Under the pieces are notes generated by a model that was not told the origin of the DNA, did no database searches, and saw only the letters and a program-made list of their open reading frames with translations. A program made the position numbers and the translations under genes. From assembly GCA_023078555.1 (NCBI GenBank), contig CM041196.1, forward strand, positions 3,038,001 to 3,102,000: a DNA stretch of 64,000 bases. The letters are read 5' to 3'. Source of the DNA: Ulva prolifera (lineage: Eukaryota > Chlorophyta > Ulvophyceae > Ulvales > Ulvaceae). How positions within the stretch are numbered: the stretch's first letter is position 1; each line of letters begins with the position of its first letter. Shown one piece after another: positions 25,324 to 63,302 of this stretch.

Positions 25324-28300
25324 CTACCGCGGCGCCCACACCCGCTCCCGCCACGCCCGCCACGCCACCTCGGCACCCCCCTCCCGCCCCTCCTCGCCGT
25401 CAGCAAACACAAACCCCGCCTCGTCGACGGAGCCGGGCTTCGGGTACATCGTCTGCAGGAGGTGGCGGCCGCTGCGGGTGTCCCAGAGTGCGCCGAGGGC
25501 CGGCGGCGCGGCGGCGGCGGCCGCGAGGTGGTCCGCGGCGACGACGAGCACGTGCGCGTCGTTCGCGGCGTACTCCAGCTGCTCGCGGCGCAGCGGCCGC
25601 GTCGACCACGCGCTGACCTGCTCCGTCTTATCGATCGCCTTGCCCAGTAGCCTGCGCCGATGCTTTCGTATGAATATGCTGGTGACGGATGTGAATGCGA
25701 TAAACAGGGGTTTCATTGACAATATGTTGATAGTGGAGACTATGCCGTTGGTGTTGGTCAGCAAAGCTCTGGAATGCTTCCGAGCACAGACGGCTGCACC
25801 AACTCCCAGTAGTCTGCGCGCTGCACACTTGCCCCAGTCAAGACATCGATGTGATCACACTTCACCCCAGCTGAGCTAGTCTGGGGGCATCTCAGAGTGA
25901 TACATTCCACCGCGCCTCGTACCCAAGTCGCTATGCGTGTTGGCACACCGTCATGTTGTTGAAATCTCTCGCTGCCACAGGGCAAGTCCGGTGATCAGGA
26001 AACCTTCATGTGAACAACATCAAATCAAGTAAACACGTCTAACTCCCCTCCCCTTAATGTCAGAACACTGTCTCCTGGATACAGTGAGGTCCCCGCGGGG
26101 TCCGCCAGCAGTGTGCTGATACACCAGCCATGCAAAAGGAAAGCACGCATGCCATGGAAAGCGGACAGGCTGCAAATGACATCCCGCATGCGCATGGCAG
26201 ACGGCTCAACGGCGTATGCATGCACCGCAGACATGTGTCAAGATGGCAATGCCAGCAGCGGGGCGCACCGCTTTGAGAGCGTGTTGAGCGACTCTTGCAC
26301 ACGGCCCTGCTGCCGCCTCCGGCACACCGCCTCCAGCGCACTCATGTTCACAAAGCTGCACAGCTCGAAGCCCGGGAGGACCTCACAGGCGCCCGCGCAG
26401 GCATCCCCACCCCCCCTCGCTTCCGCCGCACCCTCCGCAGCGCCTCCGGCCTCCGTGCTACCCGGCACCCCCCGCCCTCGGTCTGCTTCGTCCGCCGCCC
26501 GGGAGCTTTGCGCGGCCACGGGCCGCGCCGCAGGAGAGCTGTCAGGCAACGCCGTTCGTTCAACAGCTGCACCCGCACGGCGACGCGGCGACCGCCGCGC
26601 GCGGCGCCGCGGCGGCGGCGGCGGCACGCGCCGCGGCGTGCGGACGCGCACGGGCAGCGCGGCAAAGACCGGCAGGTGCGGGAAGGAGTTGACGAGGGCG
26701 TGGAGGTCGTTGTGGAACGCGAACCCGAGCTTGAGGAACGCAGGGCAGGCGAAGAGGGTGGTGAGGAGGTCGGACGTTGCACGCTCCGCGGCCGTCAGCT
26801 GCTGTAGGTGTGGATGCGTCTGCGGCCACGGCCGCCGCTGCTCGCCGGACCCTGGTATCTCCGGGCTCCCCGCTGCAATGCATACCGCCCGTGAGTGTGA
26901 GCGTGCCTTCCGGCGTGTGCTATTCCTGGCTGTAGCGACACTCCGAGAGACCAAGGAGATCACGCTGTCGCATGGGAGAGCACGACAACAGATGAGATCA
27001 GTCTCAGCTGCCACACACGCTCCGAGCGTGTTTGGTGTGGAGGAGCGATGGCAGCGCACCGCTGCTCTTTTGCCGCAGTGTCGTCGGAAACCCGTATTCC
27101 CACATTGCGCCTCCTGCTCACGTACAGCTGTGCCAGTCCGCAGTCAATGCAGGGCAGACCGGCCCAAGAGCAAGATTCAACGCTTCATGCGACAGGCCAG
27201 CACGCACGCAGCGCAGCGCAGCAGGAGGCGCACCCGGCCGGTCCCGGCGGTTCTTGCGCACCGAGCGGCACAGCGCCTGCATGTCGAGGACCCAGGCGCG
27301 GCTGCGCGTCGCGATTTGCAGTGTCGCCACCGGCGTCGCGGCCTCCCCGCGGCCGTGCGGCTCCCACTCCGCGTCGAGCCCCACTGGAACCGCCTCGTAG
27401 TAGCTGCTCCGCCGCGACACCGCGCCTGCTGCGGCGCGCAGCTCCGTGAGGACCCCCCTGACACCCTCCGCGGAGTCCACCTGCAGAAATACATGGCGCC
27501 GTGAGCCGCCGGCACCGAGAAACCCACGCGGCTCATCGAAGACCGTAGAGCATGCGTTTTCCCAATGCCCATGTGACGGTGCATGCATGAGGTTCATGCA
27601 TGAGCGACAGGGTTTCCAGGGTTGATGATCTACCACACAGTGCATGCAGGCGTGTATCTTCGCCCATGTGCGCACGCATGCATGCGTGTGAAGCGGTGGA
27701 TGAAGTGGCTAGGGTATCACATGACCAGGGCATCGAGAGCCGCACCAGCACGATATCCTGCTCTGCGAGGGGACACCGATACACCTCCAGCCGCTCTTTT
27801 CCTTTCCCTGCCACTCGCGCAGGCCGCCGTGCGAGGGCGGGGAACCCTCTGCTGCTCCCCGCCGCGTCCCCCGCCGTCACGAGCGGATTCGACAGGTCTG
27901 TCAGCGTCTGCAGCGGCACGCCCTCGCTGCGCCTGCTCATGGCGCCCGTCAGCACGACAGACACGCTGACTGCAGCAAACTCCGCGACGGCGGCGGGAGC
28001 GGGCGCGGCGGCTGCGCGCGGGGCTGCGGCGGCCACCGCGGCGGCCTCCGCCGGCCGGCCGACACAGTCGATGATGCATCCCGGCTTGATGCTCCGCATG
28101 AGCTTCGACGCCGACTGTTCGCCGATGCGGCGGGCGAGCGTGGCTCCCATGATCATCTGCACACTGCATGCACACAGCAATGCATGGCATCAAATCAACC
28201 AGAGCTCGGCCCATTGCATGACAGAGCCCCACAGCGTGTCGGCAGGTGTTGCAACCAAGAGCAGCGGTCCGAACGTCCAGTCATGCATTTGTTGCAGGGA

Positions 28301-30641: not shown

Positions 30642-33600
30642 GAGTGAACACCGGTACAGAGTTTGAGGACGATGTTTCTCGGCTTCAAAGAAAGCTTTCT
30701 GTGTTGGACTTCATCACTTCGCATGACTTCAACAAAGCTACCACAAACACTCAGACAGTATGGGACAGGGAGCTTAAGAGGCTCAGTTTGCTGGACTTCA
30801 ACTCTGCTGGGGTGCGGACGACCCACAGTACAATATTGTTCTTGTGCAATGTCTTGGGCTGCGATTAACTGAACGCGTCAACAAGCCAGGATTCGCCAGC
30901 TGGCCGGCCAAGCAACAAATGGACAAATCGCAGTCGTCCGGGCAATGCTGCACCTCGCCGGCTTCCAACTTTTCAGGAGGCCAGAAGTGCTGTTTTCCAG
31001 CGCATGGGCACCGGCAAAATTGGCACGCATCCGAGGCAGATACTCAATGAACTGAATTGTGCGTCCTGATTCATCATCATCACAATGTACCATACTCTAT
31101 CTGTGGTTGTCACCATGGTATAGTTTGCCGAACGGCTATGTGTTTCTGCTTGTAACTGTCCTTTCTCGGTCTGTGTGGACCTACTCTTTGGCCATGTGAT
31201 TGATGTCGAAGTCAAGGGTGGCTCTGTGGCTGCAGGGTCAGGCCGCTTTCAGCGTTCAAGTGTTGCTATCGCGATCACTACAACGTTTCAGGCGATAACC
31301 ACAAATCCCATATTTGAATCAGCTGCACTTGCTCTGATCTGCGCCAACTGTGTTACTCTGGCTCTGCACGACCCGCTGCTCCCAGAAGATGCTGGCATCA
31401 ATGCCACACTGGCAACAATAGACATCATGTTCAACTTCATCTTCACAGCGGAGATGTTCATGCGGATCCTTGCCCTGGGCGGGATCATACCATACCTTTC
31501 ATCGTCATGGAACTGCTTTGACTTTGTCATGGTCCTTGCTGGGTATACACAGTTCATCCCCAGCGGCTCCACTGCAGGCGCTGGGGGGCTGCGCGCCCTG
31601 CGTGCGGTCCGCGCCCTGCGGCCACTACGAACCATCACAAGATTCTCATCTCTACGAGCTGTAGTTGTCTGCTTCCTTGAGGCTGTGCCTCTGCTGATGT
31701 CCCTGGTCGTTTTCCTTCTCTTCATGTTCTTCCTCTTTGCTATTGCGGGAATGGTCCTGTTTCAGGAAGCGTATCACCGTGCATGCGTCAATGATGGCAC
31801 GGGTGCTCTTGAAGAAGGCCCAGACACTACCGGAGAGTTCAGTTGCGGCGTACGAAGTTGTCCAGCTGGCTTCACGTGCACCTTTCAGGAGCACATTGAT
31901 GTTCCAACACCTGGCTTTGATAACATCGCTCTTGCTATGCTGAGCGTGTTCCAATGTACTACCATATCTGGCTGGAGTTATGTGATGTACCGAGTCCAAG
32001 ATGCCATCCATCCTTTTGTGGCAATTTATTTTATTGCGCTGGTGCTCATTTGCGCATATTTTGTCATCAATTTATTTCTCGCTGTGCTGAAGCTCAAGTT
32101 TGGTAAGGCCCAGAGAATGCTGCCAACTGGAGACGAAGTTGTCATGAAGCATGAGGTGCGGTCCAAGCTTTGGAACCCGCCTGACCAATCACATCCTGCG
32201 TGCTGATCAGGCTTACTTGACGGTGGATGTACTTGGAAAAAGCTTGTGCTGTCATTTGCAATCATATGTGAACAGGCATGCACAGGTGTTCCACAAGGGT
32301 TGGGAAAAGTTACTCCCACAGGCCACGACATTAGTGTCGCGCTCCTGGTTTGGCGGGTTAATGCGGTGTCAGCGTGCGACCGTTTTCTGCTGTGTTCAAA
32401 GCTATCTCTTGCCTGTCTTCATTGCCATTTGCAAGTGTACCCAGCTTCATAGAATGTATGTCATCAGGATGGTAGCATCGGCACCGCATCGAGTATATGT
32501 TCTGGAATGTTGCCATCGTTGTGACAGTCTTGCCCCAGAACTGCATAAAGTACCATAGCGATGAGGCAGAGCCAGTACCCGCCCCCGCACTGCTCAACTA
32601 TTTATCAAAATGCATGTTTTCTTCGTTGTGCTGATGGTCACAGTGGTGGGTACTGCTTGTAGACCCTGAGGACGGCTCTGCTGCGCTTGATGAAGGTCCC
32701 CACCAAGACTTTTGTGACTTCATTCAGAGGTCTCGCGTCACTCAGAAGGATGAAATTGTCTTTGCCGAGCTTGCTCAACTCCGGATGTCGGTCGGAAAAT
32801 GGGCATCCTACCGTTGTGGTGAGTGATCTGAACAGTGTGTCGGAGACAAGGACAATTCGTCACCATTGCCAAGACGAAGCCGCCACAATCAAATGTTGTT
32901 CAGCTGGCATGCGTGCTCTTGTGACGCGGAAATTGACCATGGTGTGCTCTGGAAGGAGGGAGAACTGAGTCACTCCCACCTGTGTCTTCTGCCTCCCTCC
33001 ACGTCATTTGCAAAAGCAACTGCGCCATCGCACATGTGTGTACTGTTGATGGTGATCATGTGGTCGGTTATGCATTGCCTGAGGGTGTCTCACAAATTCT
33101 CGAAGCTCGAACTGTTCCCTGGGGATGTTAGGGTCAGGAGGTGGTATTTCAAGTGATGATCAGGATTCACTCTGGCCAGTGCCATGGCGATAGTGTGGTG
33201 GCCCCGCTGTCGGCTTTGGTGCTGGTGTGGGCAGCCTCGCTGCAACTCGATGCAGTACTGTTGTAGGTCTGAGTGAGCGTCAAGACAACCGACATGCATC
33301 TTCCTTCGCTTGACACTTGATTGCACAGACATGCCTGTTGCGTCAAAATGATGTCTGTGGCTGCAATTGCCTGCCAACTTTAAATGGTGCACAGTATCAT
33401 GTAGCTGAAGCAATCTGTGCCGGTGTGCGCTGGGCATCTAGATGATGGTGTGCCTAGCTTGGTTTTTACGCCTCAGCAGGTTTGGCCTGTTTGCGGACCT
33501 GCGGTAACCAAGTGCAGGTTTTGTGCAGGCTCAGGAAACGCTTCTCCAAGTCAGTAGCTCTCGAAATTTCAGATTCAGCATCCTTGGGCTGATAGTTCTC

Positions 33601-36600
33601 AGCACGTTTGCGCTTGCAGTGGAGTATGATGGTATGCCAGCAGTACAAGAGCAGGTTCTTGATATGGTGAACCTTGGGATCACATGCGCATTTGCCGTTG
33701 AGGTGGTGATCGTTGTGGTTGCTGATGGCCCTGGGGTGTACTGGAGAGATCGGAGCAAGCTGCTCGATCTCATCGTTGTCCTCGTCAGTGTGGCAGACCT
33801 TGTCATCAGCGCATCAGCTACTGGCGCTCAGTCCGACCACACCGCCATACGGGTGCTCAAGTCGCTGAGAGTGATGAGAGTTCTGAAGCTCTTCAAGTAC
33901 GTCGAGTCCCTCGTCAAAATTGCTGAGGTCCGATGCTGCCGATAATCTTGCACATTGCCACACGTGACCTTTTTATGTTGTTCATGTTTGAGGAGCCCCT
34001 TGGACTCATTCATTATCATGTTAGGAGCTACTCTGGCGTGTACGTGCTTTGCACAGGCATCTTGCCGCGTTCGCTATGCTGGTTGAAAAAAGCTAAATGG
34101 TTCATGCTTTGCAGCAGTGTTGTGCACAGCGATGTTCAATTTGTAGAGGGCTAAGTTGGCTGCTGCATGGCATTGTATTTACATCTGAAACTTCCTGAGA
34201 CTTGGCTTGCCGACAGACGCACTTGGGCAAGTGCGTCAGTAGCCTTAACTGTCTCGGGCTTCAGCTTCTCCTACCCCCGGTCGCTGCTGCACCGCATAAA
34301 CATGCTGATGGACAAGCAGATGCACGCGTGCAACATATATGTCGGCTAATACACATGTCGGCTTACCGTTCCCCCATGGCATGGACTGTGGGTGTCAGAT
34401 GTGTGGGTATGGAAATTGACATGCTGCAGGTTCTGGAGGCATCAATGGGCTCATTCGTGGCTGTTGGAGTGCTGGCTCTGCTCTTCATGATCGTCTTTGC
34501 AATCGTCGGGCTCCACATCTTTGGGGGGGCTATACCATCTGACCAGTTTCCCAATTTTAACTCGTTCTTCAATTCCTTTTTGACTATGTTTCAGGTGTGC
34601 CCAGGTTCTGTGCAGATTGTTCATCAGACCTGTCAGGATGCTGACACCAATCTATGCCACTGCGGTGATTCGCTTGAGACATGGTTTGTAGTTGAATGGC
34701 AGACTCTGTCGATTTGGTCGCGAGATGCCATTTGGGTATATGTCCTCACAGAGGTCAAAGCACCAATGCTGTTCCTGCTTTCAGTGATGTGCACCCAGCT
34801 GGTCACGTTTTCATCGGAGAATGCAATAAATTCGCCTGACTCATCTGAGGTCGGACGTGTTGGCATGCAATTTGGCTCTCTGATAAAGTTGAGCATCATA
34901 TGCCACAGTTCAAGCTGGCAGTGGTGACATGGTCAGTTCCTTGCAGGTGTTGACACTGGAAGACTGGGAGATCATCATGACAGACCTTGTAGCAGCAACA
35001 AACTGGTGGGCAGCACTGTACCTGCTTGCATGGATCCTGATAGGTCATTTTATTGTTCTTACGCTCTTCCTCGCTGTCATTCTGGAAGCTTTCGAGAGCA
35101 TGTATGACGTCACTGCTGGCAAGGACCTCATCATCGCTGAGATTGATGCACAGAACTCCGTTTTGGTGCCTGGCCATGGCTCCACTCTGCCGCACCGCAC
35201 GCCCTCGGACGGGAATACCTCGCTGGGATCAGATTTCTACATGGATCTTGTTACCCGACAGCGTTCTCAGGTGTGGCAGCGTGAACCACCCCAATCCTGC
35301 ACCAGACCCGTCCTCTGTTCTGCAGAGGTTTACAGGCGCACGAGCCATGCTGCAAAATCCTGAGAGCTTGTGATGTCCTATGCTGCTGTGGTCTGATACG
35401 TTTTGTGAGGCACCACACCTGCATGCCTCGCTCATCACAGCTTCGACTTCTTGTCCACATGCTCGTTTCCGAGATATGACTATGCAATCTGCGACGGCAT
35501 GTGATCATTTGCCTGTAGAGCGATGTGTTCAGTGATGCTGTGTAGAAGCCGTGCTGTGGCTGTGCAGCAGCTACCTGCTCTTTATGGACATAAAGAAACG
35601 CGGATGATAGACGAGGCAGCATCAACAGAGACACCACAGAAGTTCATCGGTGATCGCGCCGATTTAAGATCGCTTACCTTGGGAGGGGATGCTGGCCCGA
35701 ACAGCCAGACCACATCTTGGAACAACACCATGGTCAGAGCTAATACTATGATCCCACCTCGCACCATGACAGGTATGTGCATGTGTACAGTGCACATGGC
35801 ACTGTCGGTGTGTGTCAACAGACGTGACACCTGCCCATGTCTGCACTAGTTTTGGCTCTATTCGCCTAGGCATGTCACATGTTCATCTCTGGACGTGCAT
35901 GTTCTGGGTCTTGCTCATCCGCCAGCGGACATGCTGGCCCGATTTAGGATCACAGACTTCTGAGAGCTACTGATGCAGGTTCAGCTGAGATCGCAGAAGC
36001 ATGTGTCATCAATGCGCCTTTGGATCTACATGTGCAGTCACCTGCGGCACAGGATGAGCCACAGCCGATAGGAGAAGCCATAGAGCCTGCGAACAAGCTT
36101 CCTGCAAAGCGTTCTGCCTACAGGAATGCAATGATAGGCTCAATCTTGTCAGGGCACTCTTCATTTGCGAAGGCAGGCCCAGGAGAAGTCTCCATCATCC
36201 AACCAAAGTGGAAATCCAGTCGCGTCTCGGTGGCTCCTGGGCTCCCGCCATACACCTCGAGGTCAAGTCAAGCTCAGCCTGGTGAATCGGAGTGTTTCCC
36301 TCGGGAGGGTGCCGCGAACGATATGCTTGTCAGCCACTCCAGACGCGGATGGGCTGATTCTCACACTAAGGAGCTGTATCGCAGCATTGTCTGGGACCAG
36401 CCTGGAATGGCAGCGATTATCGCTGGAACGTCCACTCGAGGCAGCGTGCATCGAGGCGCAGTTAGTAGCATGGGCATGAGCTCAGGGAGGATGCCGGGCT
36501 CAGCAGCAGGACAGCCACCAGAGAGGCGTGGCAGCGCTGACGTCTCGCGCCGTAGTTCCCACATAATCGGCTCTGACAGGGAGGCACTCGCCCGGGAGCC

Positions 36601-39600
36601 CAGCACAGTGTGCAGTCGAATCAGCATTGCAGCTGGGTCAGAGAAACCGCGTCAGTCAGCTCAAGTGCTGTGGCAGAAGGCTCGCCTGGCCGAGCAGGTC
36701 CGGCAGCGAGTCCGGGGCCCGAAAGTTTTTATGGGCGCGGCGATGGAAGGGTCACCACACGGCATCCACCGTGCGATCGTGCCCAAGTTTGTGCCGCCTT
36801 CAGTGAGTGTGGCCGCGGCACACAGCCAGCGTGCTGTGCGGCCGCTGGACCGCCTTCCAGACTTCATCGGCGCTGCGGCATTGGCGGTGCCGCGAGCTGA
36901 CGTGAGTGCACAAGGCACGCAGCGTCCTGACCGCCCAGTGGTGCAGGAGGTGAGGCCACGCCGCGCTTCTATAGACGCGCGGCTGCAGAACGTCCAGCGG
37001 GAAGTCTCAGATTACAAAAAGCTCCTCGAGCAGGCGGAGTTTGGCCGGAATGCTCTGGAAGTGGTGGTGCATCAGCGCTCCCCACACAGCCCGGCAGGCG
37101 GGGACAGCGACCGAGGGGATGTGGGAGGCCGGGGCGACGACTCGCGTCGTCACGGCAGCGACGTGCCGGAGCTTGCTGGCAAGTCTTTCAACCTGTTCCC
37201 TGCGGGCATGTGGCTGAGGCGGCGAGTCTATGGCATAGTGTCGCACCAGCAGTTTGACAACTTCATTCTGCTGTGCATCTTCCTGTCGTGCTGCGCGATG
37301 GTGTACGAGCACCCGCAGCTGGAGCCAGGCGCCCTGGACACGCGCATCCTGAGTTGGCTGGACATCGTGCTGACCGCGATCTTTGGCGCGGAGTGCCTGC
37401 TGAAGATGTTTGCGTACTGCGTTAGGCGGTACCTCAAGGAGCACTCAAATAAGGTGTGCAACAGCTGCTGTCGGTTGTGGTTAGTTGTCGCTGAGGCGGC
37501 GTGGGTCCCCCGACAGAGACAGCAGATGTGTCGACATCAAGTCACCACCTTGTTGCAGCGGGGTTGCCACAGGAGTGTTCAATGCCTCAGATGCGATTCC
37601 AGGCGGCGCCTTTGTGTCTGTGATTGTGGGTGATGGTCTCCGTGTGCCAGCCATGTGTGCCTCAGGTATGTGTGCTTGCCTTGATGTGGAGCAACAAACT
37701 GCCATGTTCAGTGCTTCACAGACACAACAGTTGTGACCTTAGAGACTTGTTGCTTTCTGACTTGGCGATTCAAGTCTGTTCCAGTGACATGAGGCCTATA
37801 TGTGAGGCAGCCTTGCTGGAAGGCAATGGTCTGACATGCGCGATCGCATGCAGTTGGACTGCTTCATCGTCTGCACATCTGTGCTGCTCATTGCCGCAGA
37901 GAGTGGTGCAGAAGGCCTCCAAGCCATCAAGGCATTCCGTGTTCTGCGTGCTCTGAAGCCACTCCGCACACTGACACACAGCGCTGGCATGCTCCTGGTG
38001 CTCAAGTCTGTCACGCTCTCCGTGGCTGCCATGGCAAACGTGTCCCTGCTGATGCTGCTCGTTTTCATCATCTTTGGAGTCATGGGCATGCAGCTGTTCT
38101 CTGGACTCTTGTACAGGTGAGGCTTTCACACTGCACGAGCAACACCTGATCGGTGAAGCCAAGTGTACAAAGCTTGCCTCATGGTTGAATGGGTGATTTG
38201 CACCATGTCCGCTCGAAGCAGAGTCACGAATGTGAGCACCTGTATGCCAAACTCCACTGCATACTGTTGTGCGCCTGTAACAAAGCTAGATTGCCTGCAG
38301 CTGCAGCGACGGGAGTATGGTTTCCAAGCAAGAATGCACAGGTACCTTCGTGGATGACGCAGGCACCATCCAGGAGCGCAGCTGGACGAATTATCCGCTC
38401 AACTTTGACAACTTTGGCAGTGCATTCCTGGCGATGTTTGTCACCGTCAGCCTAGATGGGTACTCGGGGCTGCTGATTCAAGCTGTGTCTGCTCCGAGCA
38501 CCAAAGACCAAGCCCCCAAGGTTTGCAGCTATTGAAATTTTGTGAGCAGCCTGTGGTGATTGCGACTGCATTTGATCATTTGGTACGGGATTTGTCGCCG
38601 ATTTCCCTGTTCCTGGGGTTTTTTGTGTTGATGCCTCGGAAGTGGTCTCACCAACGTCTGCCAGTCCTGACTACCTGCCACAGTTCCGCTGGCATCCGCA
38701 CTGGGCCACATATTGTCTACTGCTCCACATGAAGTGTCCCAAATCACATGATCATTCAGTACTGTTGTGTTGTTGCAAATTGAGCCTTCAGCGCCCCTGC
38801 AGCCCAGCTCCCCTCTTCTACGATGAGTACGCCTCGCCTGAGAGCACCCGGTCGTCTGTTCTGACAAGAGCTTGTGCTGAGCATCAGCGCTGGCGACATC
38901 ACACTACTGTCTAGAGACCCACTAGTGCTGCATCTGGGCATGGCAAGCCCCTGTGGTGCAATGCACGAAGCCCATGTACTCTGATTATCTACCGTGTTCC
39001 AAATTGACTTGACGAGTCTTTCACCTGTGTGTTGATGTAGTTTATGCACAGTCCCCTTGCGGCGCTGTACCTCCTCACATTCATCACCGTCTGCGCCTTC
39101 TGCCTCCTCAACCTCTACGTCGGGGTCGTCTTCTTCCAGTTCTCCCGCATCCGCCTGCTCGCGCAGACGGGCGCCGTTTTCATGAGCGACCGGCAGCAGC
39201 AGTGGGTCGAGATGGCCAAGATGACGTTCCGGGCACGCCCACGGGAGATACCTCCGGTGCAGACCGTGCCGGTGCGGCAGTGGGCGCGCCGCCTGTCGAT
39301 GAGCAAACGCTTTGAGATTGCGGTGCTGTCGGTCGTCGTTGCGAATGTTATCGTCATGGCCCTCAACACGTACGGCCAGAGCCGCGCAAAGACGACCGTG
39401 TTTGAGCGCATCAACCTGGTGTGCTCCCTCGCCGTCCACACGGCCTCCTGTGCAACTTGCGTTGAAGCAGAGTGTGCCTGGGGTCCCGCGCTCGTGGTAC
39501 ACTGGGGACATGCACCCTGGCAGCAATTGATCGTGGTAGTCATTGATCTACACGCATATGGACCCGGACCTTGTCTCTGGCCATGCATGCGGCTGTTTAA

Positions 39601-42314
39601 ATCACGAGGCGGCTTCGCCTCTCAGCCTGTGTCCAGTGATTTGTGGTTCCTGTCTCAGAGCAGAACCATGTGGAGCGGAGTACTGAACACATGGTGGCAG
39701 CCACGGCCCTCGGCGCTTGTTGACGACGTGCATACTTTGCGAGGGTCCTCGGATGGACTAGCAGGTGTTGGCGCACACTATGGACGTGGTATCGTGCAGG
39801 TATTTTCGTTGGTGTTCATAGCGGAGGCTGGCATCAAGATCCTGGGCTTTGGGTGGCGCTTCTACATCCGCAGCGGCTGGAACAAGTTTGACTTTGTGCT
39901 CGTGGTGGCCTCGGTGATTGACTTTGTCATGGCCGCCGTCGGCTCGAGCGTCGGCGGCTCCATCTTCAACATCCTGCGGTCGCAGAAGCTGCTGCGGGTG
40001 ACCCGCATCACCCGCATGCTGAAGCTCATCAAGTCCTTCAAGTCCCTGCAGAGCCTCTTCGTGACGCTGTGGGTGTCACTGCCGGCGTTCTGGAACGTCG
40101 GGGCGCTGCTGCTGCTCATCATGTTTGTGTATTCGTACCTGGGCGTGCAGCTGCTTGGAGGCCTGTGCTATGGAGACGCGATCAACGAGCATGCGAATTT
40201 CGACCGCTTCTGGATGGCGATGCTCACCCTGTTCCGGTCTGCTTCTTTTAACGCCCCCCCTCCCCGCCGCCCCTTCATCAAAGTGCCTGCAGAATGAACT
40301 GCATCTGCACTTGGATGTACAGCTGTGCGAACGTCGGTGGGGCCCTCTGCTGGTGGGGGCGGATCACGGGGGGACCTGAGAGGCCATGCCTCCGGCTGCT
40401 GGGCATGTTGGACATGTGGTGCCGCGTCAAGCAGTGGTGCATGACTGTGCTGCCGATAGCCTCTCAGGAGCATGACGCACTCGCTGTTCTAGCGTGTCGG
40501 TTTTTAAGGCATGGACACTCGTCAGGCACATGGCCAGATTGTATTCGCCGGCCTATTCGAAACACAGTCGGAACCTGGAGCGAACACAAGGACGACAGAT
40601 CTGGGACATTACCCTCATGACTGCAGGGTGGCAACGAATGATGAGTGGCTGGGTCTGATGCTGGACGCAATGGATCGGAGTGGTTGCGAAGAGGGTAAAG
40701 CTGGCAACTGTGGAACATGGGCGGCTGCCCCATACTTTGTTAGCTACATCATTGCGGTCTCAATCATAATGTTGAATCTGTTCACGGCAGTCATCATTGA
40801 AAACTTCGAAAAGCAGCAGCAGTCGGAGAACTGGGTGCTGCAACCTGGAGTTCTGGAAGATCTGGCAGAAGTCTGGGCTGAGTTTGATGACGGTGTGCTG
40901 AGCTCCTCTGCTGTACATCAACCTGACGATGCAGTGCTGGTTCAGCCCTTCGCAATGCGACCTTGAGCTCCAGCGAGCAAGCAATCTGCAGTCCTTGGAG
41001 CAATAGGTACAATCGTATGTTGCTCTGATGAGCCTCGGGCTCCAATCTGTTTGGTGCCATCAGAGCTCTCTGCCGAGCTCAACTAATGGCGCACTCCAGG
41101 CATAATTATTCTTGGTGGCCGGCGTGTTCCAGGATGTCAGCTGGGCCACTCCATGATTGGTGAAGAATGGATTAGAAAAGTGTCATGCATGAATTTAACT
41201 TGGACACGTTCACAAATTTTGCTCTGTGGATGCACAAGTCATGGCCACTCCCTTGTGACCCCGCTCCAGACAAAACCCCCACTTCCCCCCCCTCCCCCAC
41301 TGAGGTCGTCATTTATTGGCCTGCAGGCTCTGGAACGATCGACAATGAGGTCTTCGAAACGTTCCTCAAGAGACTCGGGCCTCCTCTTGGGCTACGAGCC
41401 CATGCCACCAACGCGGAAGTCTTCAAACTGGCAGCGCAGCTACAGGTTCCGCTGGTGAACGGCCGCCTGCCGTTCACCCGGACAACATACGAGCTGGTGC
41501 GCGTGCACATGGGGCAGGACCTGCCCCTCGGGGACATCCGAGAGCAGCTTCACGCCCTCATAGACCGCCACTGTGGAGTCCAGGTGTGTGCTTCCACACC
41601 GCAACACCGCCGCGGCCCTCTGCTGCGCTGTGCTGTGAGAAGCGCCCTCTTGTGGAGGGGTACTCTGGCGCAGACGGTGTGTGGGTTCTAGTGAACATGT
41701 TCAAGTTTCTCCCTCGCAGCACGCTACCGTGGCACTGAGGCGGTGCTGGCATGCAGGCGTCAGCAGAGACTGCGTCGATGACGGCGAGCCACTCGCTGAC
41801 AGTCCTACGCCTGCAGCAGCGGTGGAGGCTGTGCGTACGCGTCGCGGCGGTGCAGCGGCGGAAGGCCTTCATCTCGGCGCACAGCGCCGCAGCGTGCCCG
41901 ACGTACACCGCGCTCCTCTCGCAGCGCCTGCAACTCGCCCGCGAGGTCTGCGACATCGCGCGAGCCCCGCAGACGAAGGTGCAGCTGCGGAGTACGACCG
42001 CCGGCAGCCCGCTTAACGGCGCGCGGTTTGTGTTTGGGTTTGAGGTCGACGGCATGCTGCCTAGTGATGCGAGCAGAGCCGCCGGCTTGCAGTCGGGGCA
42101 GCGGTTGCAGGTCGCTGCGTGGCTCGCTCGGGCAGCGGGGCTCGGGCAGCCGCCACAAGGCCACATGCATGGTGGGCACGCGGCAGCGGCACCCACGCCT
42201 GGGTCTTTGAACATGCTGATGTCAGAGAGCATCAAGCGGTTCGCGTGGGGAGGCCCGGCGACGCCTTCCCGGGAAGAGCGCCTGAGGGAGGATGCTGAGC
42301 ACGAGGATGCGTGA
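30642..42314 (+). CDS. Four-domain voltage-gated Ca2+/cation channel alpha subunit (about 2,000 aa; N-terminus incomplete)
   Basis: Exons: probable N-terminal 30642-30811; 31253-32155 (all of domain I); 32644-32818; 33529-33927; 34430-34594; 34947-35270; 35568-35772; 35979-37453; 37854-38116; 38307-38520; 39041-39418; 39800-40236; 40627-40892; 41327-41583; 41757-42314. Phases agree except one unresolved I-II linker junction near 32818-33529. Every domain has six helices and an S4: DI LRALRAVRALRPLRTITR, DII IRVLKSLRVMRVLKLFK, DIII IKAFRVLRALKPLR, DIV LLRVTRITRMLKLIKSFK. Pore sequences are FQCTTISGWSYV, FQVLTLEDWEII, FVTVSLDGYSGL and FRVATNDEWLGL, giving filter residues S-E-D-D. The C-terminus has a degenerate EF-hand (EVWAEFDDGSGTIDNEVF), a pre-IQ PPLGL segment and an IQ-like LRLQQRWRLCVRVAAVQRRK. 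The II-III linker is about 490 codons, serine/arginine-rich. It is predicted to be a plasma- or ciliary-membrane channel carrying Ca2+ or mixed cations. Confidence 0.9.
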
Positions 42315-52900: not shown

Positions 52901-54803
52901 TTCACAGCAGCGTTGGCCTCAGAGGCTCTGGCACGAGTGCATATCTCGTGAGATAGCTCAACGCAGCAAAAGCAACCAGCTCCCAGTGCATGTCAGCATG
53001 TCTGCCCTGTATATGTATCTCCAGTACAGGAGCTGTGCAGTTGGTTTTCACTTCTCTCGGTCAGTACATGCACTGAGGTGCTCCCAGAGCACCCCGTGCA
53101 GTTCACATGCATGCTGATCGCTGACGCTGTGGCACCTCATGTCACTGCGCAGGGTGTGCACACCAGCTACACCACAGCATGCGCCAGCCAGTTCCCCCCT
53201 GCCCCAAGCACCAAGGGCCAGATGTCCCATGAGGCCACGTCCCTTTGGCAATATTGGCCACGCTACAACCGCCTGGCATGCATGGGGGTTCACAAGGAAT
53301 ACGTACACGGTACACACAGCTCGAGCTGATCAGTACGCCACTTGCGCGCTTGCCGAGGCACACGGGCATTCAGCTACAGCAATGCCACACCCACCCAGGA
53401 CGGCATGCGCTCGCCGGTTGCACCGATCACCGATCACACGGGAGGACGATAGATGTGCATGCATGTACATACATGTACTCATGCATACAAGGTACTGATA
53501 GGCCCCCAAGGTAGGGCTGTGGTACGTGCTCGTGCCCGGCCTAGTGCCATGACTGCGTGAGTGGATTTGTGTGTGAATTCCTAGCAATGGCTCGATTCCC
53601 GGCCTCTGTCCTACAAAGTTTGTAACTACAAGGTACTGATCAGTACCTATATCGATAGGCCCCCGGCATCATCTTGGCGCCATACACGCTGCAGCACCTG
53701 ACCACCGCCAAAGCCTGGATGAGGGCACAACCAAATGAAAACAAATAAGGACGTGTACATGCGCAGTGGACTGACGTCGGGAAACAAAAAAGTTGCAAAA
53801 GGCCTGAACGAAGCATGGACTACACTGATGATCATGATTTAAGTATCGCTGCATCGATAATTTGTCCTAATTCGCTGGTGTTTAAAAGATGTTTGATGAT
53901 ACGTGTTCCGCGAATGTGTCCGGTCGGGTATGTGACCCCCTCCGAGGGGGGTACACATTGCCGGGACACATTGCACGAGGACGCGACCGGGGACACATAC
54001 TTTTGACTGATCATCGCGAAGCACACCAGAACATCATTTTTGTCACCATATACCACATCTAGCATGAACGAGTACGAGTGCACGTGCACTGAGCATGTGC
54101 AAGGCATGCACAGTAGGCACGCCTGGAATTGCTGTCAAGCCGCTTTCTTCGCAATCTCGGGCAAGCTGTCCTCCGATCCAGCTGCCATCGTTGCAGTGCT
54201 GCGCGGTCCGGCCTGGTGTTGTGGCCCGAGCTCGGCCCGAGCTCATGTACCTGGAGATGATATGCGTTGCGGAGTCTCGGGCAGGGAATATTCCCTACCG
54301 CGCCGCACCGCCGCACCTGGAGTTGCCTCCATGTGCATGGTACGTACCACCGACCGGTCGTACGGGAGCTGCTCCGGCAGCAGTCAGAGGCAATTCAGGC
54401 TGTATTTGAGGACTTCACGAGGCCAGTTACTGACAACATATCGGCATGTTTTCGAGATAGCATCGGAATACGTGTTGCGCCAGCGTTTCGCGGCCAGCGC
54501 CGGTCACAATTGCAACACCCCCATTTTCACGTGCATGAGCCTCTCAGCTGTGTACGCGTCCTTCTGCTGCCACGACTCGGTAGGACGGGGCAATGCGAGC
54601 CGTAAGGGACTCATACTTGACAGCACCGCACGTTTCCCTGTTCAAGCTTCACCATATTCTGACGGTCCACACCAAGACATGTTTCACCGCGCGATAGTGC
54701 CATCGCTTCACGTCTACTAGACATGCTGAAAGTTGAGATGACTTCAACAATCTGTTAGCTTGCAAATTAGGCCGTATCAAGTAGACTTTGCCGGCTGGCC
54801 GCA
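49994..54803. other. Region of unclear coding content
   Basis: Several frames look partly coding but form no coherent model. A possible plus-strand tail exon ends at 50607 (HDALKHHSPNSPEAPDGAPV...SMSM, stop), which could finish the beta-helix gene. On the minus strand 50671-50550 reads VERLLTNEAYSRHLHPHIDM. The minus strand at 52104-51940 is Pro/Ser-rich. No domain was recognised. There are 77 codons or fewer without interruption in most frames after 52.4 kb. Confidence 0.35.
51102..51126. repeat. Poly-G run
   Basis: About 24 G on the plus strand following GGATTT. Not assigned to an exon border. Confidence 0.9.
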
Positions 54804-57800
54804 ATGACGGAGGCTGCGGAATTCAACATTGACAAAGCTAGGCTCACCGAAATCAGCCAGGAGAAGGACACCAGGGGCTGGAATGAGCTAGGAGGTGTCA
54901 AGGGTGTTGCTTCAAAGCTTAGAGTCAATGTGAAAGTGGGTCTTTCAAGCGACGCCATCGAGCAATACCGGACCGCATTCGGCGCCAACACGTTCAAGGA
55001 AGTACCGCCAAGGTCCTTCTTCAGCATCTTATGGGAGACCTTGAAAGATCCGACGTTGATCCTGCTCATGGCTGCTGCAACAGTGAGTACTGCGCTGGGC
55101 GCTGGCATCAAAGAAGAACGGGAGGAGAATGCTTGGGTGGAAGGGGTAGCAATCTGGGTCGCTGTCATCCTCGTGTCCATGGTGGGCAGCTTGAATGACT
55201 ACAAAAAGGAACTTCAGTTTCGACAGATGAATGCTGTGAAGGATGCGATTATGGTGAAAGTGCTGCGCGACGGCAAGGAGTCCTTGGTCGGCAACGATGA
55301 GCTTGTAGTGGGCGACGTCATGATACTGGACACCGGTGACAAAGTTGTGGCGGATGGCGTACAAATAGATGGCCACGGCCTCATTATTGATGAAGCTTCT
55401 CTCACTGGCGAATCTGATCCAATCAAGAAGCTGCCAGACGGTGATTTCTGGTGTCGCTCGGGAACGCAGGTGCGCTCAGCCCAGAAACAAACCATCACAG
55501 CTGCGCATCATCAGTGTGTTGTGAACTTGTTTCGTATGTGGTGTGCTACATATCATGTCAGTCAGTTGCCGAAGGCTGCAGACGAATTTTATATTCTTGC
55601 ACAACACCCGTTGGTCATGAACGCAGGTGACAGATGGCGATGGCCATGTTCTCGTGACAGCAGTAGGAGTCGCTTCAGAATGGGGATTAATCATGGACAA
55701 GGTCACTGTCGAGGAGCAGGAAGAGACCCCTCTCCAACAGAAACTCGGTGTGCCCCCGACGGTGCGTTGGTGCACTGGCTGCACGGGTGTGAGGCACAAA
55801 ATTCTGGTGGGACAGCCACAGCACCGCACGCACTTCTTCCTGGGTTGAGCACTGTCACTACAACCCTGCACCTGAATTGCGAATGCCAGGTTGTGCCTCA
55901 GTTGTATGCTGAGCTCTGTGTGTCCACGCTCATGCTGAACGTGGCTTCACTCACCGATACTGCATGATAAAATCACATCTCTCATCCACCAGCATTATCT
56001 GTACCATAATCATGCCTTTGAGCTTTCGCACTGTGAGGCGGACTCCTGTATGAGTATGCCGTGAAGCGGAATTGAGATGTGTCCATTGCCACGTATGATG
56101 TCGCTCTTGTAGCATTTCAAGCCGGAGCTTTTATGTGACCGCAGTGCCAAGTCTGTGGGTGAATTACATGCACATTTAGTGTCTGCTTTGCCATCATCCC
56201 ACTTGCAGCTCCATCTGGCCAAGACCCTTCTCCATGCTAACCGTCACATGGTCATTCTCACACCGCTGAATTCCCTGTGCAGGTTTCGTGGCTGGGGCGA
56301 TCGGGAAGGTTGGCTTTGCAGTCGCCCTGTGCGCGTTCGTCATCATGCTCATCAGGTGGTGCGTCGACAAGAAGGGATTCCCGATCAAGGAGATCAACAA
56401 CAACGGCCCGATCCAGTTCTTCCTGTACGCAGTCACCATCATCGTCGTCGCCATCCCCGAGGGCCTGCCCCTCGCCGTCACCATCTCCCTCTCCTACTCT
56501 ATGAAGAAGATGATGCGGGACAATAACTTCGTGCGCCACCTCGCGGCCTGCGAGACCATGGGCGGTGCCACCGCCATCTGCTCTGACAAGACAGGCGCGC
56601 CCCTCCCCCCCCCCCCCACCGCAAGCCACACAATGCTTGCCAGTATGCTCATGCATGGCAGAGCAGCACCTGCATGCTGTGCCGCTGCGGCTGCGTGACG
56701 TCTCTGTCTTGACCAGAAGCCTGCATGCAGCTCTCAGCTGCGTGGCTCCCAGGTGAGTATATATGATGGCGCTGATTCATTGGTGGCGCAGGGCGCTGGT
56801 GTGGCGCAGGGCGCTGGTGTGGCGCAGGGCGCTGGTGTGGCGCAGCGCTGCTGCTTCAGGCCGCGGTGTTGTAGACCCCGTCAACGACGGCGCAGGGCAC
56901 CCCGGCACAGCGGACGCGGCTGTTTTTGTGCTGCCGTAGTCAGTCGGCACTCAGCAGCGCAGCCGCGTGTGCAGGCACGCTGACGGAGAACCGCATGACG
57001 GTCGTGGAGGGCTGGTTCAGCGGCAAGACGTACACGGCGCCGCCGCGCAAGGAGCGCATGCCCGCGGCCGTCGCGGCCGAGATCGTGAACAACATCTGCC
57101 TCAACAGCAAGGCCTTCTACCTCGAGGAGGAGGGCAAGAAAACGGAGTTCGTCGGCAACCGCACGGAGTGCGCGCTGCTCATGCTGAGCCAGCGCGACTG
57201 GGGCACGCCGTACGAGGGCGTGCGGAAGGCGCATGAGGGTGCCGTCGTGAATGTGTGCCCCCCCCGGTATGTGTGCGGCGACCCCCTCTAGCGGCCGGCA
57301 CGGTGGCCCTGTCAGGGGGGGGCATTTTTTCGATCCGCCCACCCGCCCAGGGTGCCATGCCTGCGTGCGGTGGACTCTCTGGTAGCATGCGTGTGTGGCT
57401 GTGTCGGTGCCGGGTCATCCCGGGCTCGGCCGGCGCGGCCACAGCCCCTGTACATCGTTTTTTTCCTGGCCAGCAGCTGCAGGCTGACCTCCACGTGCTC
57501 TGAGGAGGGGGAGGATCAGGCGGAGTAGCAGCGTGCGTGTCTGTGCCTGCGGGGTTGATTCCTGCGGCGGCGTGCCCCTCAGCGGCCCTTGGTGTGCGCT
57601 GCAAGCCAGCACCAGCACCCCATGTGTAGGCACCCGCTCATCGACACACCCGTAGCGAATACTCCCTTGAAGCTGCTTTTCCGAATGCCAGTAGCGCCCC
57701 TAGCATGGCACAATGTGTGCGGTGGCAGTGCACTCCCAGTCAGAGACACGCATCCTCCATCCTCACGGTGGACGTAAACGCCTCATTGCTCTCTCCCGGT

Positions 57801-60800
57801 GGCTATGCAGCCATGTTTGGCGTGCGGCTACGTGACCATGATGCATGCATCCATGGTGGGCCCGGTGTGCAGGTGTACGGCTTCTCGTCGGCGAAGAAGA
57901 TGGCGTCGGTGCTCGTCAACCGCGGCGACGGCACGCTGCGGCTGTACAACAAGGGCGCCTCGGAGTGGGTGCTCGACGTGTGCACGCACATGCACGACGC
58001 CGACGGCTCCGTCGTGCCGTTCACCGCAGCCCGCAAGGCCGAGCTGCTCGCGACCGTCACCGAGATGGCCTCCCGCGGCCTCCGCACCCTCGTGCGCCCC
58101 GCTCCCTCTTTCCACCCCGGGACCACCTGCGGCGGTGCACGCATGCCACCGCTTGGTGTCAAAAGTCATGTGCACCTGATGCATTGCTGCATCGGCCTTG
58201 CTTTGAGGTCGGAGCCTGGCTGCAGCTGGATTGCGGGCATGTGTGGGGGATGAGCGTGGTTGGACTCGTTGCTCCCACGCGTCGGCTGCGCCTGCTGTTG
58301 CCGTTGCAGGGAGGTGGGTAAAGCCTTATCCATGCGCCACTGTTCCCCGGCGGCCGCGCTTCACCTGGCGCATGTAGAGGTAGCTGCGCCTTGTGCATGT
58401 GGGTGTGCGTCGGCAGCCCGCCCGCCGTGCGCTTGCGCAAAGCCGGGCCGTGTCAGGCCAGCATGCATCATACAATGGCACCTGATCCTGGCAGCAAGGG
58501 CGCGCGCGAGCAGCGCCCCATTGTCGCCACCAAAAAACGTGCTTTGTAGCGTGAGAGGGGGTCGCTGGGTGCAGGCGCTGGGATACACCGACTTCCCGGA
58601 GCACGACGCGGCGCGGCCGGCCGACTTTTTCGACACGCCGCCGGACCGCGACCTCACGCTGTGCTGCGTCGTGGGCATCAAGGACCCGGTGCGGAAGGAG
58701 GTGCCGGGCGCGGTGCGCACGTGCGTGCGCGCCGGCATCCGCGTGCGCATGGTCACGGGCGACAACATCCACACCGCGAAGCACATCGCGCGCGAGTGCG
58801 GCATCCTCGACGACTCGGGTTACGCCATCGAGGGCCCGGAGTTCCGCGCGACGCCCCGCGACGAGATGATGCGCAAGCTCCCCAACCTGCAGGTGCGCGC
58901 TGCTCCCCGCACGCCTGCTTGTGCGCGCTCTTGCGCCGGGCCCACCCGCGCCGCTGCCTTCGGGGGTGGTGCCGTGTGATGACGATGCGTGTGGTGGTGG
59001 CTGCGGGGGTGGGGCCCTGCTGTGGGAGAGTGTGGCTGGGAGAGTGTGGCTGGCTGCGGTGGCGCACACCCCGCGCCGACCGCGTGCTGTCAGCGAAAAT
59101 CCATGCGGGAATGATGGCCGTGTGCGTGGCGGTGGTCGTGGCTCGGGTGTTTGTCGTTGCGGGTCGGCAGGCGGGCTGAGTGGCGGTGGTGGGTCTGCAG
59201 GTGATGGCGCGGTCGTCGCCGACGGACAAGCACACGCTGGTGAATATGCTGCGCGAGCTCGGGGAGGTTGTGGCTGTGACGGGCGACGGCACGAACGATG
59301 CCCCCGCGCTCAAGGAGTCGGACGTCGGCCTCGCCATGGGCATCGCCGGTGCGCGCCCCACCTCGCTGCCCTGCGCTGCCTCCTCGCTGCCCTGGCTGCT
59401 TTCTGCAACCCTGTCCCTCGTCTGTTGCGTGTGTGTGGGGGAGGGTCGGCGGTTCGGTTTCTAGGCCCAATCATGTGGCGTACATTGCAGTTCATCAGCA
59501 TAGCTCTGGTTCGTGGGTAGCAGCTGTTTTTGCGCACCATCCCACGCACACATCGGTGACCTGGGATTGCGCTAATGCTCCACTAAGAAGTCCAAGCCTG
59601 AGGTGGTATCTCTTGAACGGCGGCATCCCTGACGACCCATGGAGGCCCCGTGGCCTGTAGCGCCTCTGTGTGCTACCTTGCCACCGGCCACACCCGTGGA
59701 GCTTGTCCGCCCTGGCCTTTCCCATGGCCGCCACGGTGTGTGTATAGTCTGCAGTCAACGGCAAATCATCCGTGGCGAAGTTTTTCGGTGCGGTGCAGCA
59801 GTCCGTCACTGCTTATGCATGACCATGTAGCCATGAGGCCACGGCCGACTCTGGCCGCTGCGGCGTGCAGGCACAGAGGTGGCGAAGGAGGCGGCGGACA
59901 TCGTCATCCTCGACGACAACTTCAAGTCGATCGTGCTCGCGGTCCTCTGGGGCCGCTCCGTCTTCAACAACATCCGCAAGTTCCTGCAGTTCCAGCTGAC
60001 GATCAACATCGTCGCGCTCATCGTCGCCTTCATCGGCGCCTTTGTCAGCAAGGAGCCCCTGAACGTGCTGCAGCTGCTGTGGGTCAACCTCATCATGGAC
60101 ACCCTCGCGGCGCTCGCGCTCGCCACCGAGGACCCCCACATCTCGCTGCTCAATCACAAGCCCCACGGCCGCGAGGCGCCGCTGATCAGCGCGACGATGT
60201 GGAAGCACATGTTTGTGCAGGTGCGCGCCCCCGCTGCTGCAGTGGCTGCCTCTCGTGGCCGCCGTGCGGCCGCGCATGTGTGCGTGTGTGTGCGGCGGCT
60301 GGCTAGCTGCGAAGACCTTTGCATGCGGCCTGTGCGTCGGGCTGGTGTGGGTGGTGATCCAGTTCGTTTCAGCATCCTGCGTATAGAGTGTTGCTGTGAG
60401 GTTTGGCGGCAGCCATCGGGTTTGTGGATTCGGCGTCTGTGGTCAGGATGGGAGCTCCGGAGGGCTCCTGTTTCCACGCATCAGACCGATCGGCGCTGCC
60501 AGCGCTTCCTGTCCCGACCTGCTGTGTGCTTTGTGCAGTCGGCGTACCAGATCACGTGGATGCTGCTGATCCTCTTTGGCGCGCCCGCGGTGTTTGACCG
60601 CTACAACATCCGCACGGAGTGCGAGGCCTTCAACGCCGGCCGCGCGTATGACGCCGGGGAGACGCCCTTCTGCGAGCACGGCGACGTCACCGAACTCGCG
60701 GCGGGCTTTGCCACCAGCCTCGCCCCGGCCGCCGTGTGCCGCGCGGCGTTTCCCATCGGCGCGGACGGCTGCCCGGACCTGCGCGCCCCGACGCTCGAGG

Positions 60801-62216: not shown

Positions 62217-63302
62217 GCACCGCCCGTGTCGCCGCCGCTGCACACGCGCGCGTGCGCGCACGACCCATTGCACGGGCGGGGCGTGCCTCGAGCCTGCGTG
62301 GCTGATGGGGTGGGGGCGGCTGTGCTATGGCTGCGAGCCGGTGTGGCCGTATGCCTGCGTGGAGGGGTTTGTGGCCGATGAGAGGCTGGCGGGGCGTGGG
62401 GCTGGGCTGCCAGGGAGGTGCGCGTCGCGAGCCTGGGGGCAGCTTGGTCAACAGCACATGACTGACGTGCGGGGGTGGACATGTAGCGGCTCCGAGGAAG
62501 CTGCACGGAGTAGAGGTCAAAGGGTTGATTTCGCAGGGGTGGTGGTGGGCGAGTATTTGTGGCGTGGGCGTGCAGCGGCTCGAGCGCACCGCGATTGGGT
62601 GAAAGATGAGCATGACGAGATTGATGCTATGCAAATCCATGGTGGTTGAGAGCGCGTTGTTGGACGTGCCTGTCTGTGCAGTGCGTGGATTACATAGGTT
62701 TCCGTTCCAGAGAAAGGCTTCGTACAGCGGAGGCACATCGGTGCTCTTGTGCGTGTCTACGTAATGATAGAGCTGAAGATGCAGGCCTCGACGTTTTTAA
62801 GTCGTTCTTTCCTTGCGCGGCTCGCCATACAAGAGACAGGCTTCTGCAACGCAGCTATCTGGCGATGTAACGTGCACATGCATCGCACTCACTTTGTGCG
62901 CGGGACAGCTGCCGGTGATGAAATACCGCATACCGCATGAAATACCGAGTTTCACGAAACAACCATCTGTGCAACGCTGACTGCGATTGGGTGGCCTCTG
63001 GCTATGATGAGATGCTTCAATCATCGCCTGTCACATGCGGCACGTCACTGTGCCGCGATGGACAGTTATGGTAGCAATCAAGTATCGACATCGTCTTGAG
63101 TCAAGTCGCTGACTGGAGATTCCGACACCGTAGTGAGTTTTGGGATTGCGATCACTCATCGTTGCTTGTACGTGGCAAGTAGTCCGCGCCTCGCAGGCAT
63201 TAGCGCCCTGTAGATCTGTATCCCCAGCCACATGATTAAGCACCATGGGTACATAAGCTGAGAAGATATATGTGGCTCTCTGCTTGAAGATTTTGGGTTG
63301 AT
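62217..63302. other. Intergenic: 3' flank of the Ca2+-ATPase, 5' flank of the RCC1 gene
   Basis: No domain-bearing frame. A short CATACCGCATGAAATACCG direct repeat of GAAATACCG occurs at 62918-62948. Promoter elements for the RCC1 gene cannot be specified. Confidence 0.45.

What the first reader, a model, noticed from the sequence alone, without database searches (positions are those of the whole stretch)
31930..40660. Channel selectivity filter reads S-E-D-D, with no acidic residue in domain I
The four pore loops align without gaps to Ca2+-channel pores: FQCTTISGW (Cav: FQCITMEGW), FQVLTLEDW (FQILTGEDW), FVTVSLDGY (one D where Cav has E), FRVATNDEW (FRCATGEAW). The domain I codon is TCT (Ser). 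Animal Cavs use EEEE or EEDD, Navs DEKA, NALCN EEKE/EEEE; fungal Cch1 has Asn in domain I. A serine in domain I with E, D, D elsewhere suggests altered Ca2+ affinity or mixed cation permeation. In domains III and IV the tryptophan or neighbouring positions also differ (SLDGY, TNDEW).
Basis: partly seen in the sequence, partly recalled or inferred. Interest (0 to 1): 0.78.

Follow-up and report, generated by a model that had tools for sequence, protein, structure and literature searches.

The report
Protist calcium-type channel, unusual ion filter
An intron-rich eukaryote carries an apparently intact four-domain voltage-gated calcium-type channel whose ion filter has a serine where animal calcium channels have a glutamate; similar departures are already listed for other protists and fungi, so this is a good test case rather than a surprise.

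Summary
[quoted passage not shown] After modelled splicing its pore loops read FQCTTISGW, FQVLTLEDW, FVTVSLDGY and FRVATNDEW, aligning to Cav pores without gaps. The filter residues are Ser (TCT, 31967-31969), Glu, Asp, Asp. No modelled exon contains a stop, and cysteines, III-IV linker, S4 charges and C-terminus are typical of the family. TCT is two or three base changes from any acidic codon, and no second domain-I pore exon was found in the window. It did not draw out a counter-charge: Glu just above the filter in domain IV, beside the Cav 'beacon' Asp in domain II, giving five acids over both levels, as in T-type EE(D)DD. Novelty is modest: non-acidic domain-I residues, and acids at that domain IV site, are already reported in other eukaryotes. 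The exact SEDD set was not found in the texts searched (figures and supplements not seen). No orthologue or organism name could be obtained, so 'lineage feature' stays open.

The parts
31238..32104 (+). Domain I S1-S6 in one open frame, no intron needed; exact exon ends uncertain
   Evidence: PF00520 E 1.9e-53 on 31214-32203; phmmer of the same stretch E 1.6e-99 to CaV2.2; of the five chains printed the best domain I alignment is CaV2.3
31967..31969 (+). Domain I filter codon TCT (Ser) in FQCTTISGW
   Evidence: ungapped alignment
33523..33927 (+). Domain II S1-S4 (5' end uncertain)
   Evidence: PF00520 E 1.2e-21 on 33508-33936; junction 33928-34429, one of six candidates
34430..34594 (+). Domain II S4-S5 linker, S5 and first half of pore loop (ends LTMFQ)
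   Evidence: PF00520 E 2e-08 on 34433-34594; donor GTGTGC at 34595
34947..35270 (+). Domain II second half of pore loop (VLTLEDW) and S6; GAA filter codon 34959-34961, GAC beacon Asp codon 34962-34964; 3' end uncertain
   Evidence: PF00520 E 1.1e-08 on 34950-35270
37169..37455 (+). Domain III S1-S2 (5' end arbitrary, within an open frame)
   Evidence: PF00520 E 1e-14 on 37169-37456
37823..38116 (+). Domain III S3-S5; the acceptor (TGGAAG) is weak
   Evidence: PF00520 E 2e-15 on 37836-38114
38301..38520 (+). Domain III turret (SCSDGSMVSKQEC) and pore loop FVTVSLDGY; GAT filter codon 38455-38457, Tyr at HFS+2 38461-38463
   Evidence: PF00520 E 0.001 on 38317-38520, below the curated cut-off; parallels CaV1.2 turret and pore
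39041..39418 (+). Domain III S6, short III-IV linker with VFMS (39176-39187), domain IV S1-S2; a further small exon before 39041 is possible
   Evidence: PF00520 E 4.4e-08 on 39041-39440
39800..40236 (+). Domain IV S2-S5 and first half of pore loop (ends LTLFR, the Arg codon split by the intron)
   Evidence: PF00520 E 5.4e-30 on 39788-40240
40627..40892 (+). Domain IV second half of pore loop (VATNDEW) and S6; GAT filter codon 40640-40642, GAG Glu at HFS+1 40643-40645
   Evidence: PF00520 E 6.9e-11 on 40628-40963
41327..41583 (+). C-terminal EF-hand/pre-IQ (GPHH-like) exon; 3' end uncertain
   Evidence: PF16905 GPHH E 9.2e-06, 25.9 bits against a cut-off of 26.8, on the joined piece; junction

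Best explanation
[quoted passage not shown] Shown by sequence and alignment: four S1-S6 domains, charged S4s, the Cav pore scaffold, the filter residues, the beacon Asp at HFS+1 of domain II, an extra Glu at HFS+1 of domain IV, and an IFMT-like VFMS in the III-IV linker. Inferred: depolarisation opens the pore and it conducts Ca2+. The Ser removes one carboxylate from the high-affinity ring, which lowers Ca2+ affinity and lets more monovalent ions through. The domain IV Glu one step further out partly makes up the lost charge (five acids over both levels, as in EE(D)DD), so the channel should stay Ca2+-permeable rather than become Na+-selective; it has no Lys in the filter. The III-IV VFMS may give fast inactivation.
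For: Filter codons and junctions. Family match of every domain. No stop in the modelled exons; S4 basic residues 7/7/5/7 in stretches chosen by eye; extracellular cysteines in line with the published 4-0-2-2 scheme (L5I 4, L5II 0, L5III 2, L6IV 2 by eye; one further Cys in L5IV); short III-IV linker (scheme in PMC6259924, passages). C-terminal GPHH-like match just under the cut-off. TCT is two or three changes from any acidic codon, and no second DI pore exon was found by six-frame tblastn of the window. Functional precedent: domain-I E-to-A mutants of CaV2.1 and CaV2.2 (PMC6899504, passages). Role of HFS+1 acids in domain II or IV (PMC10120453, passages and section 15). Five-acid ring EE(D)DD of Cav3 (PMC9694082, abstract start in the listing).
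Against: No electrophysiology, transcript or orthologue. The beacon literature concerns Asp at HFS+1; Glu in domain IV is not a tested beacon in what I read. Domain-I neutralisation was tested with Ala in an EEEE background, and those mutants also reached the surface less well, so counting charges may mislead. In the DII pore piece alone, NALCN (3.4e-20) and Nav1.7 (8.2e-23) score better than Cav1 (4e-19) and CaV2.1 (1.4e-19), though below Cav3 and CaV2.2/2.3, so the Cav label rests mainly on DI, DIII and DIV. Several junctions had more than one candidate; the N-terminus and I-II linker are unresolved. The Tyr at HFS+2 of DIII could disturb the filter in ways not considered.
Confidence: 0.6

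Rival explanations
1. Full compensation: the channel is as Ca2+-selective as a T-type channel, because the Glu at HFS+1 of domain IV replaces the lost domain-I charge.
For: Five acids in HFS plus HFS+1, the same as EE(D)DD; beacon Asp retained in domain II. Many non-animal Cavs carry the beacon in domain IV only (PMC10120453, passages).
Against: A carboxylate one residue further out sits above the constriction; domain-I neutralisation alone already gave CaV2 channels outward monovalent current (PMC6899504).
Confidence: 0.2
2. Non-selective Na+/Ca2+ channel, similar in use to Nav2 (DEEA), serving fast spikes; the IFM-like linker would suit fast inactivation.
For: One neutral filter residue as in the non-selective DEEA channels (PMC10120453 and PMC6259924, passages); VFMS in the III-IV linker; Nav1.7 outscores Cav1 in the DII pore piece.
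Against: Nav1 and Nav2 lack the domain II beacon residue, which is present here; the best-scoring solved chains are Cav in all four searches; IFM-like motifs are widespread in protist channels and do not prove fast inactivation (PMC5824947).
Confidence: 0.13
3. Sequencing or assembly error, RNA editing or an alternative exon: the protein really has Glu or Asp in domain I.
For: Only one genomic sequence was available and no transcript could be checked.
Against: Two or three base changes would be needed in an otherwise open exon; the codon lies well inside a long open frame that needs no intron, and no second DI pore stretch was found in the window.
Confidence: 0.04
4. Decaying gene in which the filter is no longer under selection.
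For: Two departures in the filter region (Ser in DI, Tyr at HFS+2 of DIII).
Against: No stop in 1,214 modelled residues, GT-AG junctions, S4 charges, cysteines and a pre-IQ region. The model was chosen to be stop-free, so this is supportive rather than independent outside the long domain I exon.
Confidence: 0.03

Closest known systems
Animal Cav1/Cav2 (HVA, EEEE) calcium channels
   Same: Best-scoring solved chains for DI and DIV (CaV2.2) and for the DIII pore piece (CaV1.2); DI turret CGVRSCPAGFTC resembles CaV2.3 CGVQGCPAGYEC; beacon Asp in DII; GPHH-like C-terminus
   Different: Filter S/E/D/D instead of E/E/E/E; Glu at HFS+1 of DIV; IFMT-like VFMS in the III-IV linker; Tyr at HFS+2 of DIII
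Animal Cav3 (T-type, EEDD)
   Same: Asp in DIII and DIV of the filter; beacon Asp in DII; best-scoring solved chain for the DII pore piece
   Different: Ser instead of Glu in DI; Glu instead of Asn at HFS+1 of DIV
Protist and algal four-domain channels with departing filters (SESE, RSDD, RADD, TDEE, TEND, S/S/K/E)
   Same: Non-acidic residue in DI, some with D/D in DIII and DIV (PMC6259924 section 17; PMC5824947); Nav-like inactivation motif widespread; D or E at n+1 of DIV reported in the Lys-containing oomycete and cryptophyte channels
   Different: The exact S/E/D/D set is not in the texts read; no sequence of these was available for alignment here
Fungal Cch1
   Same: Three rather than four acidic filter residues (PMC3410928, passages)
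   Different: Fewer S4 charges reported for Cch1. Cch1 is grouped with NALCN by PMC12412391 (passages) but not by PMC10120453 (section 15); no Cch1 sequence was compared here

Membership tests
[quoted passage not shown]
   Ten of ten exon pieces covering four domains hit PF00520; nine above the curated cut-off, the DIII pore piece below it. That they form one transcript is inferred from order, strand and junctions
[quoted passage not shown]
   7, 7, 5 and 7 Lys/Arg in stretches of 25-26 residues chosen by eye
[quoted passage not shown]
   L5I 4, L5II 0, L5III 2, L6IV 2 (by eye), plus one extra Cys in L5IV; the DIII count depends on choosing the acceptor ending at 38300
Animal-type Cav (HVA or LVA) | Filter E/E/E/E, E/D/E/E or E/E/D/D | tested here: not met
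   S/E/D/D
Animal-type Cav (HVA or LVA) | Beacon Asp at HFS+1 of domain II | tested here: met
   LEDW, GAC at 34962-34964
Animal-type Cav (HVA or LVA) | Cav-beta binding AID in the I-II linker (HVA only) | not tested
   I-II linker exons were not resolved
Nav1/Nav2 | DEKA/DKEA/DEEA filter with the domain II beacon residue missing | tested here: not met
   S/E/D/D with beacon present; best-scoring chain is Cav, though Nav1.7 outscores Cav1 and CaV2.1 in the DII piece
NALCN/Cch1 | Closest sequence relationship to NALCN/Cch1 | tested here: not met
   NALCN best E 8.9e-26 (DI), 3.4e-20 (DII), 4.1e-11 (DIII), 5.5e-37 (DIV) against best Cav 1.6e-99, 1.6e-30, 2.3e-35, 5.1e-104; in DII NALCN outscores Cav1 and CaV2.1; Cch1 not available
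Voltage-gated Ca2+-selective channel (function) | Ca2+-selective current opened by depolarisation | not testable with these tools
   needs expression and patch clamp

The most novel reading that the evidence does not exclude
A lineage-fixed relocation of filter charge: the domain-I carboxylate was given up and an acid was gained one step outward in domain IV, giving a natural three-carboxylate Cav-like pore (S E(D) D D(E)) with an IFM-like inactivation motif, that carries mixed Ca2+/Na+ spikes in a protist.
Probability: 0.25. Interest if true: 0.5.

Novelty: new member of a known kind. Interest (0 to 1): 0.3.

Why it matters
It is a natural test of how many carboxylates, and at which level, a Cav-type filter needs. 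If expressed, one channel could separate the effect of the domain-I filter charge from that of the HFS+1 acids in domains II and IV. As a curiosity of residue choice alone it adds one more entry to an already long list of protist filter variants.

Tried and rejected
Orthologues: the DI exon and the spliced DIV were searched in viral contigs (no relative) and DIV in genome contigs (two distant bacterial loci, 27 and 30% identity, not followed up). These are single-sequence queries, which find close relatives only. No whole genome is held for the window, so paralogues and other reads could not be checked. The metagenome collection has a cap of zero and was not used. Organism: no tRNA and no Rfam match in the window, so no taxon is claimed; 'intron-rich eukaryote' rests on the modelled GT-AG junctions.

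Alternative exon idea: six-frame tblastn of the four pore segments over the whole window, and a motif scan of the three + frames reported for 28-43 kb. Only the DI exon encodes the DI pore. The other hits of the DI pore with E below 0.1 are the DII pore, and S6 of DIII and DIV, of the same gene. One motif hit (MRISTASGW at 40191) lies out of frame inside the DIV exon and was taken as chance. The motif scan cannot see loops split by introns.

A tree was not built, for lack of protist sequences.

Literature: 'SEDD' with 'selectivity filter' as whole words gave no paper; this covers only the held open-access library and would miss 'S/E/D/D'. Verret et al. 2010 was not read, only as cited in PMC6259924. 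Figures and supplements of PMC5824947 (277 channels) were not seen, so SEDD may well be in it. Passages of PMC11085791, PMC12412391, PMC3194816 and PMC4436565 were also looked at; they gave no sequence to align.
Full report
What is there. [quoted passage not shown] Ten exon pieces were scanned against Pfam and ten of ten hit Ion_trans (PF00520), with E-values from 1.9e-53 for domain I to 0.001 for the short domain III pore piece, the only one below the curated cut-off. Domain I sits in one open frame that needs no intron. Domains II, III and IV are split. For each of the seven introns tested, at least two GT-AG pairs keep the frame, so the choice among them is mine; an eighth junction leads to a C-terminal exon. 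Splice choices were guided by alignment to animal channels, so they are models, not observations; the acceptor before domain III S3 (TGGAAG) is weak. The N-terminus, the I-II linker and parts of the II-III linker are not resolved. The domain III exon start was taken at 38301 because it gives the turret SCSDGSMVSKQEC, which parallels YTCSDSSKQTEAEC of CaV1.2 (the CaV1.2 letters are).

The filter. The four filter codons are TCT (31967-31969), GAA (34959-34961), GAT (38455-38457) and GAT (40640-40642), that is Ser/Glu/Asp/Asp. HMMER alignments of domains I, II and III to the matching domains of solved Cav chains place these residues in the filter column without gaps in the pore loop. For domain IV the alignments to Cav domain IV were cut off in the printout; it aligns without a gap to the Cav pores of domains I-III printed and to Cav3.2 domain IV. 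In that MAFFT alignment of the four window pores with ten animal Cav pores (three each of domains I-III and one of domain IV, from CaV2.3, CaV1.2 and Cav3.2), the filter column reads S, E, D, D in the window and E or D in ten of ten animal rows. The tryptophan two residues on is present in 13 of 14 rows, the exception being domain III of the window, which has Tyr.

Is it real? TCT differs from GAA, GAG and GAC by three bases and from GAT by two, so a single base error cannot have made it. No modelled exon contains a stop (289, 298 and 627 residues in three blocks), although outside domain I the model was chosen to be open. The S4 stretches hold 7, 7, 5 and 7 basic residues, and the extracellular cysteines follow the 4-0-2-2 scheme of the family, with one extra in L5IV (the scheme is from passages of PMC6259924). 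The C-terminus gives a GPHH match at 25.9 bits, just under its cut-off of 26.8. No second domain-I pore exon was found in the window. Transcripts were not available.

What it probably does. The best-scoring solved chains are animal Cav channels in all four searches: CaV2.2 for domains I and IV, Cav3.1 for the domain II pore, CaV1.2 for the domain III pore. NALCN is far weaker in domains I, III and IV. In the domain II pore piece, however, NALCN and Nav1.7 score better than Cav1 and CaV2.1, though below Cav3, CaV2.2 and CaV2.3. The Asp after the domain II filter residue, which the beacon literature ties to Ca2+ preference, is present. In addition domain IV has Glu at that same level, where CaV2.3 has Ala and Cav3.2 has Asn (letters). 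Counting both levels gives five acids, the same number as in EE(D)DD of Cav3 (PMC9694082, abstract start). Neutralising only the domain-I glutamate in CaV2.2 and CaV2.1 leaves small inward currents and a substantial outward current that the authors attribute to monovalent ions, with less channel at the surface (53.5% and 33.5% less; PMC6899504, passages). I therefore expect a Ca2+-permeable channel with weaker Ca2+ binding and more monovalent permeation than a T-type channel; how far the domain IV Glu compensates is unknown. The III-IV linker carries VFMS (39176-39187), of the IFMT type. Such motifs are widespread in protist channels and do not guarantee fast inactivation (PMC5824947, parts 1-3 of 5 read). 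For the DIII Tyr, alanine at this site in CaV1.3 enhanced voltage-dependent inactivation only when made in domain IV, not in I-III (PMC10542529, a preprint, passages); its effects on Ca2+-dependent inactivation were not read.

What is known. Fux et al. (PMC6259924, section 17 read) list non-animal filters NEEE, EEEE, DDDD and EEDE and, citing Verret et al. [quoted passage not shown] Pozdnyakov et al. [quoted passage not shown] A beacon Asp in domain IV is described for NALCN and many non-animal Cavs (PMC10120453, passages). The whole-word search for SEDD with 'selectivity filter' found no paper. A serine or other non-acid in domain I, and an acid at HFS+1 of domain IV, are therefore each known kinds of departure; the present channel adds one instance with its own combination.

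Verdict. Observation confirmed; interpretation partly supported; interest modest. The main addition is the acidic residue at HFS+1 of domain IV, which turns 'one charge lost' into 'one charge moved outward' and gives a direct mutational test.

Noticed in passing
54771-60290: Pieces of a PMCA-type Ca2+-ATPase gene on the same strand: TIGR01517 is the best hit for 54771-55490 (198.8 bits, below its full-length cut-off), and P-type ATPase domains lie at 57630-58253 and 59837-60290.
   Followed up: partly
63262-63999: RCC1-repeat protein exon running off the window end (PF00415 E 2.6e-32).
   Followed up: no
25327-25851 (- strand): Exon of a 3'-5' exonuclease (PF01612 E 6.9e-10).
   Followed up: no
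39176-39187: VFMS in the short III-IV linker, at the place of the IFMT inactivation motif of Nav channels, in a Cav-like channel.
   Followed up: partly
38461-38463: Tyr instead of the very conserved Trp at HFS+2 of domain III.
   Followed up: partly
34595-34946 and 40237-40626: Introns interrupt the pore loops of domains II and IV at almost the same place (MFQ/VLT and LFR/VAT, one base apart in the alignment, phases 0 and 2); the domain I pore loop has none.
   Followed up: no
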